A stretch of DNA of 20,704 nt, taken from positions 1-20,704 of IMG/VR virus record IMGVR_UViG_3300025072_000066; one strand, given 5' to 3'. The notes below the pieces were generated by a model. That model did no database searches. It was not told the DNA's origin and saw nothing but the letters and a program-made list of their open reading frames with translations. A program made the position numbers and the translations under genes. Source of the stretch: a virus. Positions 9,118-20,074 of this stretch are shown here, piece after piece (the first letter of the stretch is position 1; each line of letters starts with the position of its first letter).

Positions 9118-9218
9118 ATTTTAATTTTTAATGGTTAAACATATTAGGGGACCTACTAATCACTTCGGCCCCCCTCTATGCATCAATTAAACACGAACTG
9201 TCAGACAGCCCTTCACGA
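9118..9218. other. GC-rich non-coding gap with inverted repeats
   Basis: This gap separates the exonuclease from the AAA+/VWA module and has about 47% G+C over 9146-9220, far above the roughly 20-37% of nearby genes. It holds an imperfect hairpin (AGGGGACC at 9146-9153 against GGCCCCCCT at 9167-9175), which on the minus strand is followed by AATATGTTT and could end the AAA+/VWA transcript. It also holds the inverted repeat CTGTCAGACAG (9198-9208) and, at its edge, the palindrome GACTAGTC (9217-9224). No open frame of useful length and no tRNA fold was found by eye. Confidence 0.5.
9146..9175 (-). terminator. Possible terminator or processing hairpin after the AAA+/VWA operon
   Basis: On the minus strand AGGGGGGCC (9175-9167) pairs with GGTCCCCT (9153-9146) across a 13-base loop, with one mismatch and one bulge. 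The sequence that follows is AATATGTTTAAC, only moderately U-rich. Position after the 343-residue gene and before the exonuclease gene fits a partial terminator or an RNA-processing stem. The stem is imperfect, so this is tentative. Confidence 0.35.
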
Positions 9219-11442: not shown

Positions 11443-12615
11443 TTAATTTAATTGAATTTTTATTCCAGGTAGTTTTTCATTTATATTAGAATAACTACTA
11501 TGTACCCATAAAGCATTTTTAGGGCAATTTACAGGAGTTCCTGCTTCACCGTCTGTAAGGCATATAAAAGCAGAATACTTAAGTTTAGGGTCATTATAAT
11601 GGTCCACAACTGGTTGGAAGCATGTGCCCCCTCTACCTTTGATTTCCCAATTTTGTTTAGGATTAAATTTTGATACATCTGTTAATTGTGTATCAAACTG
11701 TGCAACAGTGATTTGGTTACCTGTTTTATGCATATGTGTTATTTCATGCATAAACTCTACTAACTCTTCAGTACTTACCGAGCCCGAAGTATCTACACCA
11801 ACTAGCACGTGATTCTTATGTTTAATTTTGAGTCCCGGACTACCAGAATATCTCTTATTAAATTTTCTACGTAACTTTTTAGTATAGATTTTAGATGCGT
11901 TATTAATAAACCTTTTAAGATATTGCTTCCAATTGAATTTAGGAGGCTCTATAATAAATAGTTTTTCGATAATCTCTGCAAGTTCCCCGGGTATGTTACC
12001 ACATTTCTTTTGGATCTCTTCTGCAGTTTGTTTCATCTGATGTTCATATTGTTTTTGAACTAACTTTTTTTCTGCTTCAGGGAGGTCAGTAACTTCCTTC
12101 CACTCTTTATGATCATATTGACTATTACCGTCCATTTGATCTAAAATAGCTTGTAATTCTTCATTATCACTATTACCATTTTCATCACACTCTTGCTCTA
12201 GTAATTTATAATACCTATCAGTACCAGCTCTACGTGGTAAAAATATATCAGGGAAAGAGTTTCTTTCTAAACCACCTGGCGGAAGCATTCCGTTGTCAAT
12301 ATATTGGTTGATTTCTATATCCGCCGCAATATTAAATAGCTTTTTATTTGGGTATCTATCTGCTAGTATAATATGTCCAAAAGCTATATGTAATAGCTCA
12401 TGTTTTAATAGACCTTGTTGATGTAACTCTGAAAGTTCTTCAAAATAATTTGGATTAATAACTAGGCGCATACCTATTCCGTGTTTTCCTACACCTGCGG
12501 TAGCACAGCTCTTAGTGAATTCTTTTTGCATTCCAATAAGAAATATACCGTAGAAAGGCTCTGTAAATATCAATGTCTTAGATATTCTAGAGAGTTGATC
12601 TTGAAGTGTTTTCAT
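11443..12615 (-). CDS. Putative metallopeptidase / VWA-like domain protein (DUF2201 type)
   Basis: This 390-residue protein has two domains. The N-terminal one (about 1-130) contains a zincin motif HELLH at 72-76 with a further His at 81 (IAFGH) and a possible third ligand region at AADIEIN (97-103), as in DUF2201-type putative metallopeptidases. A charged linker (about 140-225) and basic stretch lead to a C-terminal VWA-like domain beginning near 265: the MIDAS motif DTSGS is at 275-279, with T331 (GRGGT) and D355 (LTDGE) as the remaining metal-site residues. Such proteins are usually paired with MoxR AAA+ ATPases, exactly as here. Its start overlaps the zinc-protein stop by four bases (ATGA). 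It probably acts in a chaperone-like complex; protease activity is predicted, not shown. Confidence 0.85.
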   Translation of the reverse strand: MKTLQDQLSRISKTLIFTEPFYGIFLIGMQKEFTKSCATAGVGKHGIGMRLVINPNYFEELSELHQQGLLKHELLHIAFGHIILADRYPNKKLFNIAADIEINQYIDNGMLPPGGLERNSFPDIFLPRRAGTDRYYKLLEQECDENGNSDNEELQAILDQMDGNSQYDHKEWKEVTDLPEAEKKLVQKQYEHQMKQTAEEIQKKCGNIPGELAEIIEKLFIIEPPKFNWKQYLKRFINNASKIYTKKLRRKFNKRYSGSPGLKIKHKNHVLVGVDTSGSVSTEELVEFMHEITHMHKTGNQITVAQFDTQLTDVSKFNPKQNWEIKGRGGTCFQPVVDHYNDPKLKYSAFICLTDGEAGTPVNCPKNALWVHSSYSNINEKLPGIKIQLN

Positions 12616-12875
12616 AATCCCATATCTCTTGCTTCATCAGCTTTATCTTCAGCTATACGTTCTTTCATTTGTTCATCAAATTCATAATCTTCAAGAGGCT
12701 CTTTAAAGAATTCTTCACAGGCATCACAGATAAAACCTTCTTCCGGCTCTGCATGATCTAAACAGTCTTTATTTGAACAAATACTATTAAGTATTGTTGC
12801 ACCACAGCAATAGCTGCGTCCGTCTTTATTGTCTGTGTATTCTCCCCCACAGCAAGGGCTTACTAATTCTGCCAT
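12612..12875 (-). CDS. Small cysteine-rich zinc-ribbon-like protein
   Basis: This 87-residue acidic protein has eight cysteines in paired arrangement: C8-C9, C23-C24, C33, C38, C50 and C53, the last in CDAC. This suggests one or two zinc-binding knuckles in the first 55 residues, followed by a highly charged helical tail (about 56-87). It is the first gene of the AAA+/VWA operon, joined to the metallopeptidase/VWA gene by an ATGA overlap. It could be an adaptor or nucleic-acid-binding subunit of the module; no known family is certain. Its leader has no Shine-Dalgarno sequence, and an inverted repeat ends 28 bases before its ATG. Confidence 0.75.
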   Translation of the reverse strand: MAELVSPCCGGEYTDNKDGRSYCCGATILNSICSNKDCLDHAEPEEGFICDACEEFFKEPLEDYEFDEQMKERIAEDKADEARDMGL

Positions 12876-12903
12876 AATTTTAAGTGTTTAATAAATAAAA
12901 GAT

Positions 12904-12951
12904 GGAAATATAAAGCCCACCCATGCTTTCGCTTATAAGCTTTATATCTCC
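12904..12951 (-). terminator. 13-bp stem followed by U-rich tract: terminator or attenuator in operon leader
   Basis: GGAAATATAAAGC (12904-12916) and GCTTTATATCTCC (12939-12951) are complementary at 12 of 13 positions, with a 22-base loop. Transcribed on the minus strand, the stem is followed directly by ATCTTTTATTTATT, a U-rich tract, and then by the ATG of the zinc-protein gene. This could terminate an upstream RNA or act as an attenuator. The stem is mostly A/T, so termination strength is uncertain. Confidence 0.4.
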
Positions 12952-13029
12952 AGATGATCGCTATGCCACTGAGACCGTAACGTATTCAGTATTAAAGGCA
13001 GTCACGGCGTGTCATCATTCTCTTATTTT

Positions 13030-13047
13030 AACTGGAGGTTACCAGTT
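13030..13047. repeat. Perfect 6-bp inverted repeat in the non-coding gap
   Basis: AACTGG (13030-13035) and CCAGTT (13042-13047) form a perfect stem around a six-base loop. It lies between the two GC-rich blocks of the gap and could be one arm of a larger RNA fold, or an operator-like palindrome. Confidence 0.45.
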
Positions 13048-13086
13048 TGATTAATAAAAAAGGAAAGGAGCGGACTTATATATGGA

Positions 13087-13140
13087 ACCCCTTAGTTAAA
13101 AGCCCATAATGCCCGTCTAGCCGGTTTACACTTAAGAGGT
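13087..13140. repeat. 8-bp inverted repeat enclosing a GC-rich loop
   Basis: ACCCCTTA (13087-13094) and TAAGAGGT (13133-13140) pair over eight positions as minus-strand RNA with one G-U pair, and further A/T pairing continues inward after a bulge. The enclosed segment is GC-rich (GCCCGTCTAGCCGG at 13111-13124). This would form the 5' hairpin of a minus-strand RNA beginning near 13148. Confidence 0.4.
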
Positions 13141-13200
13141 ACTTTGTAAGTATATCAACTTAAAATTTATTTCTTAAATGCTCAAAAAACTAGTCCTAAC

Positions 13201-13644
13201 CTATAATTGTTTGATAAGTTCAACAACCTCATCTACTTGCTTCTTGTTTCTTGGCATAAAAAGCACATAGTGATGATTGTTGTCTTTAAGATGTTTCTTA
13301 AATAATTTCCATCTGAGTGGAAAAGATTCATTTGCGTATCCTTTGGTTTCAATTATCCATTTACCATTAGGATCTACAAAATCCGGGGTATAAGTTATGG
13401 CCCTTATTTTAGAGCCTTTATTATACAGTTTCTTTTTAGTTCCTTCATAACAAGCTTGAGGATATACTAGCGGATCAAATATAGTAAAAGTTGTTTTTTC
13501 ATATTCTACTAAAATTTTAGCTATTTCTAATTCTTTATAGCAATGTAATTCCAATTGAGATTGAAAAGTAATACCTTTATATAGTTGTTTCTTAGCATTC
13601 TTTACTTTAGACCTTGTTCTTCTCTTTCTCATAATTGATAACAT
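13201..13644 (-). CDS. DUF1064-type nuclease (PD-(D/E)XK fold)
   Basis: This 147-residue protein matches the DUF1064 pattern seen in many phages. After a very basic N-terminus (RKRRTRSKVKNAKK, about 6-19) come FQSQLELHCYKELE (27-40), then YTPDFV (85-90), E99-T-K101 in WIIETKG, and RWKLFKK (111-117). P87-D88 and E99-x-K101 form a PD-(D/E)XK active site, the fold used by T7 endonuclease I and Holliday-junction resolvases. A role in resolving branched DNA before packaging is likely but inferred. Its start overlaps the metallophosphoesterase gene by 38 bases; the internal ATG at 13632 would shorten the overlap to 26. It is the last gene of the long replication operon and ends in TAG. Confidence 0.82.
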   Translation of the reverse strand: MLSIMRKRRTRSKVKNAKKQLYKGITFQSQLELHCYKELEIAKILVEYEKTTFTIFDPLVYPQACYEGTKKKLYNKGSKIRAITYTPDFVDPNGKWIIETKGYANESFPLRWKLFKKHLKDNNHHYVLFMPRNKKQVDEVVELIKQL

Positions 13645-19982: not shown

Positions 19983-20030
19983 AATTAATAAGTATAAAAA
20001 AATTTGTTATAATTATTTTTAAATCTTTTA

Positions 20031-20062
20031 CAAATATAATAAATTTTATAACGATATACAAA
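20031..20062 (-). promoter_or_regulatory. Bacteroidota-type promoter of the replication operon
   Basis: On the minus strand TTTG (20062-20059) is followed after exactly 20 bases by TATATTTG (20038-20031). This is a full match to the primary Bacteroidota sigma-factor promoter (TTTG, 19-21 bases, TAnnTTTG). It lies in the 92-base gap before the 183-residue gene and the DnaB gene, so it should drive the long operon to about 13201 using host polymerase. Confidence 0.75.
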
Positions 20063-20074
20063 TTTTAATGATAA

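What the first reader, a model, noticed from the sequence alone, without database searches (positions are those of the whole stretch)
12876..13200. 325-base GC-rich structured non-coding locus: candidate undescribed phage RNA
In tightly packed AT-rich DNA where most gaps are under 30 bases, this gap reaches 45-47% G+C in two blocks and shows three stems, one with 12 of 13 pairs followed by a U-rich tract. It sits directly upstream of the AAA+/VWA operon, so it may be an independent small RNA, a long structured leader, or an operator/origin region.
Basis: partly seen in the sequence, partly recalled or inferred. Interest (0 to 1): 0.72.

Follow-up and report, generated by a model that had tools for sequence, protein, structure and literature searches.

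The report
Swappable structured RNAs in phage terminators
The gap holds two structured RNA modules that match no Rfam family, sitting where a marine crAss-like phage keeps an exchangeable RNA cassette downstream of a nuclease gene; related phages carry roughly twenty different structured RNAs there, and some of these RNAs also turn up in unrelated phages.

Summary
The gap 12876-13200 is non-coding, is the longest in the window, and folds better than 100 of 100 shuffles on the minus (operon) strand. It contains two separate RNA modules. Module A (13066-13197) recurs in ten distinct phage sequences, always downstream of the same nuclease gene, with compensatory changes in 7 of 18 pairs. Module 2 (12893-13028) recurs almost unchanged, except for its apical hairpin, in a phage with different genes, beside an unrelated gene.

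The site is a hotspot. About 80 distinct versions carry a plain terminator, no terminator, or one of roughly 20 sequence-unrelated structured caps on a constant stem with a U-tract. A phage whose nuclease is 98% identical to the window's has a different cap. A second hotspot lies at 9118-9218. The commonest cap (family B, strong covariation) occurs in 63 contigs, once in each, in at least 17 gene contexts. Nothing scanned matches Rfam.

I read these as accessory RNA cassettes exchanged at terminators. Anatomy, exchange and RNA-level selection are shown. Action in trans on the host is inferred (a little under even odds); a purely local 3'-end or termination role is the main rival.

The parts
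13201..13644 (-). upstream gene: DUF1064 / Holliday-junction-resolvase-like nuclease; its last codons (ATCAAACAATTATAG) flank the hotspot
   Evidence: tandem cassettes in L034 and L106 repeat this flank
13052..13203 (-). module A with the constant hotspot base (AUAGGUUAG ... CUUUCCUUUUUUAUUA)
   Evidence: same base and U-tract around sequence-unrelated caps in relatives; fold
13066..13197 (-). module A core: P1 AGGA 13194-13197 with UCCU 13066-13069; P2 CUAG 13190-13193 with CUAG 13117-13120 and a long variable hairpin between; P3 CGGGC 13111-13115 with GUCCG 13071-13075 plus a variable distal stem
   Evidence: 10 distinct sequences, 7 of 18 pairs with compensatory double changes
13056..13061 (-). 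U6 tract after module A
   Evidence: sequence
13030..13047 (-). small hairpin AACUGG-UAACCU-CCAGUU between the modules
   Evidence: absent from the module 2 homologue
12893..13028 (-). module 2: outer stem AAAUAAGAGA/UCUUUUAUUU closing a two-armed junction
   Evidence: near-identical copy in L301/L302/L303, nhmmer E 1.5e-23; model R3 E about 1e-40
12968..12996 (-). apical part of module 2, wholly different in the homologue
   Evidence: alignment A3
12903..12952 (-). 18-bp hairpin of module 2 with internal GC-GAAA-GC, then U-rich AUCUUUUAUUUAUU
   Evidence: substitutions between the two copies keep the pairs
12612..12875 (-). downstream gene: 87-aa cysteine-rich (zinc-ribbon-like) protein, no family match
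9118..9218 (-). second hotspot in the same operon: constant base GCAUAGAGGGG..CCCCUAAUAUG (9140-9181); the window has a plain cap, relatives carry B, T, H or other caps

Best explanation
The gap is one occupied site of an exchangeable RNA cassette locus in a marine crAss-like phage. A constant terminator base (GGUUAG...CUUUCC plus U-tract) just after the nuclease stop codon carries interchangeable structured 'caps'. The window has two of them in tandem, module A and module 2. They are transcribed from the minus strand with the nuclease gene, end at the U-tract, and are exchanged between phages by recombination in the conserved flanks. Shown: non-coding structured RNA modules, conservation and compensatory change, exchange at fixed sites, sharing with other phages, one copy of cap family B per contig. 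Inferred: transcription and termination themselves, and that the caps work in trans as small RNAs released at the 3' end of the mRNA, most likely by binding a host factor, in the way accessory phage genes do; the partner is unknown.
For: Strand-specific excess folding. About 80 distinct versions of the gap with mean z -2.2, against -1.6 for the reverse strand. Roughly 20 caps that mostly do not match one another at one syntenic site, and plain or absent terminators in others. Nuclease 98% identical but a different cap in L003. Covariation in A, B (90.5% of cells paired, 12 of 20 pairs with double changes, 0 of 500 shuffles), and signs in F and D. Module 2 shared with a phage of other gene content. 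B in 63 contigs, exactly one copy in each, in at least 17 upstream gene contexts. Same cap families (B, T, H) at two different hotspots, different caps at the two sites of one genome. B absent from 66-85 kb contigs G007, G009, G010, so it is accessory.
Against: No transcript data. Every cap examined sits downstream of a stop codon and most end in a U-tract, which a purely local terminator or 3'-protection role would also give. One copy per contig could partly reflect loss by recombination between repeats and incomplete contigs. No defence system, target or protein partner is identified. Module 2 rests on two distinct sequences, so it has no double compensatory changes. Cultured crAss-like phages checked lack the gap or the B cap, so there is no laboratory system yet.
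Confidence: 0.48

Rival explanations
1. Purely local role: the caps are elaborate intrinsic terminators or 3'-end shields that stop transcription and protect the upstream mRNA from 3' exonucleases. Any stable fold will do, so folds drift and are swapped.
For: Most caps close on a stem followed by a U-tract; plain hairpins such as CAAAGGGCCCTTAACAGGGCTCTTTTTT occupy the same site in other phages; both hotspots are terminator positions.
Against: If any stable fold would do, specific cores should not be kept across at least 17 gene contexts; some relatives have no terminator at the site (L020, L029, L068); one cap type was never seen twice within a contig (63 of 63); L007 and L037 carry module A in front of a separate plain terminator.
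Confidence: 0.3
2. Attenuator or riboswitch-like control: the cap senses a ligand or a phage/host protein and sets read-through from the replication genes into the zinc-ribbon/VWA/AAA genes.
For: Compact conserved cores inside a stem that doubles as terminator resemble aptamer domains; position between two gene groups of one operon.
Against: Caps change while the downstream genes stay; the same caps sit before unrelated genes; no alternative antiterminator pairing was evident; no Rfam riboswitch match.
Confidence: 0.15
3. DNA-level mobile element or recombination hotspot without RNA function (miniature element with hairpin ends).
For: Module exchange, tandem duplication of flanks (L034, L106), sharing between phages.
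Against: Outer stems have no conserved terminal repeats; pairs are kept partly through G-U wobbles and the folding bias is towards the transcribed strand; one copy per contig.
Confidence: 0.05
4. Decayed or hidden protein gene, for example the 43-aa plus-strand ORF 12923-13054.
For: The ORF start and frame are also open in the module 2 homologue (47 aa, L301 3200-3343).
Against: The two-base difference in the stem changes Ser to Phe but keeps both RNA pairs; half the ORF is unalignable; it is antisense to the operon; module A has no such ORF.
Confidence: 0.02

Closest known systems
Intrinsic (Rho-independent) terminators
   Same: Stem plus U-tract right after a stop codon; simplest occupants of the site look like ordinary terminators.
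   Different: Most occupants carry a conserved multi-helix cap of about 50-240 nt, exchanged as a unit and shared between phages.
RNA anti-CRISPRs (Racrs; PMC10651486)
   Same: Small non-coding RNAs carried as solitary units in viral genomes (abstract).
   Different: Racrs mimic CRISPR repeats; no such similarity was tested here, and many unrelated folds share one site. A model for how such RNAs might work, not a membership claim.
GOLLD and ROOL RNAs (PMC12286853)
   Same: Ornate structured RNAs; phage association is from my own knowledge.
Phage and satellite hotspots of antiviral systems (P2/P4, PMC9122126)
   Same: Fixed genomic sites with interchangeable accessory cargo (abstract).
   Different: Cargo there is antiviral systems; here it is short structured RNA of unknown function.

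Membership tests
any Rfam 15 family | covariance model match at gathering score | tested here: not met
   0 matches for the window, 35 related loci and 6 genome pieces; best sub-threshold hit SNORD39, E 1.1, meaningless
tRNA | ARAGORN cloverleaf | tested here: not met
   0 in window and in 22 related loci, although cap D has a T-arm-like element
intrinsic terminator | stem followed by U-tract in the transcribed direction | tested here: met
   module A base and U6 13056-13061; module 2 followed by AUCUUUUAUUUAUU, a weak tract
intrinsic terminator | transcripts end there | not testable with these tools
   no RNA data held
riboswitch | conserved aptamer core with an alternative expression-platform pairing | tested here: inconclusive
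   conserved cores yes; no alternative pairing evident in the folds, not searched systematically
RNA anti-CRISPR (Racr) | mimics a host CRISPR repeat | not tested
   host unknown; no CRISPR repeat library at hand
crAss-like phage (the genome) | RNA-polymerase-associated protein, DnaB and primase nearest to crAss-like phages | tested here: met
   (best hits cr114_1, phi14:2, cr55_1); 24-34% identity, so a distant clade

The most novel reading that the evidence does not exclude
A large, undescribed pool of small structured RNA genes circulates among marine Bacteroidota phages. They ride as interchangeable caps on gene terminators, usually one copy of each kind per genome, and act in trans on the host, for example as decoys against varied defences. 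The gap in this window is a double-occupied site of that system.
Probability: 0.4. Interest if true: 0.92.

Novelty: new variant of a known kind. Interest (0 to 1): 0.76.

Why it matters
Phage hotspots of interchangeable cargo are known for protein genes. A hotspot whose cargo is short structured RNA, with at least one family (B) in 63 phage contigs and none matching Rfam in the loci scanned, would mean a class of phage accessory genes is invisible to gene callers. It also offers many ready-made RNA folds with comparative data for structure and target studies, and a direct test: does each cap answer a host factor?

Tried and rejected
Rfam at gathering score and at loose E-value: nothing. blastn of the whole gap and of cap B in INPHARED: nothing meaningful. 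Cap B and module 2 patterns in bacterial and archaeal genomes: none, or four chance hits inside unrelated sequence. Extra pattern hits for module A (L153-L157) were chance matches in other phages. Bacteroidota-type promoter (TTG-n-TAnnTTTG) just upstream of the gap: none; a lone TAnnTTTG at 13483. A loop-loop pseudoknot in module A (UUAC with GUAA) fits the short versions but fails in the window, L007 and L034, so not claimed. Origin or operator reading: nothing supporting it was seen, not tested in depth. Paper searches for phage structured-RNA hotspots gave no matching description; the library lacks most subscription papers. Oversized genome searches failed and were repeated smaller; one Rfam call and one paper search failed on input limits and were not repeated.

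Full report
What is there. The gap 12876-13200 separates a DUF1064/resolvase-like nuclease gene (13201-13644) from an 87-aa cysteine-rich gene, both on the minus strand, in a window whose other gaps are mostly under 30 nt. On the minus strand the gap folds at -84.4 kcal/mol, z -3.5, better than all 100 shuffles; the plus strand is unremarkable. There is no Rfam or tRNA match. The phage is a distant crAss-like one: its 1471-aa protein, DnaB and primase are nearest to crAss-like records including Cellulophaga phage phi14:2, at 24-34% identity. A Bacteroidota host is inferred from that and from the A-rich, Shine-Dalgarno-free starts.

The site is a hotspot. Scans with the nuclease, the 87-aa and the VWA proteins, plus one with a diverged nuclease, gave well over 100 related viral loci. 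Extracting the sequence between the nuclease stop and the next gene gave 80 distinct versions of at least 30 nt, with mean z -2.2 and 60% below -2. The flanks are largely constant (ATAGGTTAG ... CTTTCCTTTTTTATTAATCAATTAAACA); what lies between is not. Some phages have a plain hairpin, a few have no terminator, the rest carry caps of about 50-240 nt. When 22 representative caps were compared with all loci by nhmmer, most matched only their own group; two (C and V) share their 3' half. L003, whose nuclease is 98% identical to the window's, has another cap. L034 and L106 have two caps in tandem with the nuclease tail repeated between them, which points to recombination in the flanks.

Module A of the window. 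It occurs in ten distinct sequences, always at this site. RNAalifold finds a closing stem, a CUAG/CUAG hairpin with a variable insert, and a CGGGC/GUCCG arm with a variable distal stem; 7 of 18 pairs show compensatory double changes. The window's copy has the longest insert in the CUAG arm. In the whole-contig search model R2 found one copy in each of the two contigs where the site is known to hold A, and none in the 48 others.

Module 2 of the window. Positions 12893-13028 lie in an insertion relative to L022. A pattern from its large hairpin found three further contigs (L301-L303), two of them searched whole, all with the same sequence and so one independent homologue, in a phage with a MoxR/VWA pair and a ribonucleotide reductase gene, sitting between a 442-aa VWA-like gene and a 101-aa gene. 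Outside the apical hairpin the two copies are almost identical, and the substitutions in stems keep standard pairs, while one of them changes the plus-strand ORF from Ser to Phe. Model R3 finds it in none of 48 other contigs. This is horizontal sharing of an RNA module between phages with different gene content; that the two phages share a host is inferred only.

Cap family B, the commonest. A short core (GCGGTTATACTTTG) seen at the nuclease site gave about 110 viral stretches, some of them chance. A 40-sequence alignment supports three helices: 90.5% of cells paired, 12 of 20 pairs with double changes, no shuffle of 500 as good, all slid controls far lower. Searching 83 whole contigs with the model gave 63 carriers, each with exactly one match (one contig was in both sets). 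Many of the carriers had been picked because they hold B, so the carrier rate means little; the absence of second copies is the informative part, limited by incomplete contigs. Upstream genes fall into 18 clusters, one of them a likely chance hit, always a stop codon before the cap. B lies at the nuclease site in some phages and elsewhere in others whose nuclease site holds A, F or another cap.

A second hotspot. In the window, 9118-9218 lies between a 343-aa gene and a 5'-3' exonuclease gene. Relatives share its base stem and carry there B, T, H or further caps, families that also occur at the nuclease site. Two 84-86 kb contigs read in full show different caps at each site and elaborate hairpins at other gene ends.

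How it most likely works. Shown: RNA-level selection, a constant terminator-like base, exchange of caps, sharing across phages and sites, accessory occurrence. Inferred: the caps are the working part; being single-copy, position-independent and accessory, they behave like genes, not like local signals, so action in trans after transcription with the upstream gene is favoured at a little under even odds. The likeliest target is a host factor, since caps differ between close relatives, but no target is known. The main rival is a local 3'-end or termination role, at about 0.3.

Known or new. No Rfam family is met. Racrs (PMC10651486) are the nearest functional idea and hotspots of antiviral systems (PMC9122126) the nearest organisational one; neither membership was shown. 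The paper search was limited to open-licence texts, so prior description elsewhere cannot be excluded.

Noticed in passing
L062, L074, L049, L159 (nuclease-site gap): Cap D looks tRNA-like: a 7-bp T-arm-like hairpin with loop UUUGAAUC next to a short closing stem; 8 of 20 pairs with double changes in three sequences, yet ARAGORN calls no tRNA in L062, L074 or L049 (L159 not scanned).
   Followed up: partly
G001 28746-28863 and 31404-31594; G006 50566-50694: Other gene ends in related 84-86 kb phages carry elaborate hairpins, so more hotspots probably exist.
   Followed up: partly
L071 nuclease-site gap: A large cap of about 240 nt precedes a B cap in tandem; its fold and family are unknown.
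   Followed up: no
L072, L080, L106, L123 with cap B: A 3' extension (ATTGATAAACAACAA...TTACAAC) follows the B core in a subset, perhaps a B subtype.
   Followed up: no
window 11443-12615: PHROGs names this family 'HNH endonuclease' but Pfam shows a DUF2201 metallopeptidase-like plus VWA-like protein; the PHROG name looks wrong.
   Followed up: no
L230 2027-2308; L281 6124-6197; L027 3255-3332: Cap Q (GAGTAAAGACAGAGCGCAGTGCAC...) recurs in three phages with differing outer stems, once next to a B cap.
   Followed up: partly
caps B and F (e.g. L136 2820-2892, L050 4467-4534): Both contain TATACTT beside a helix, perhaps a shared motif or chance.
   Followed up: no
window 19983-20074: A 92-nt gap in a very AT-rich part of the operon, not examined.
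   Followed up: no
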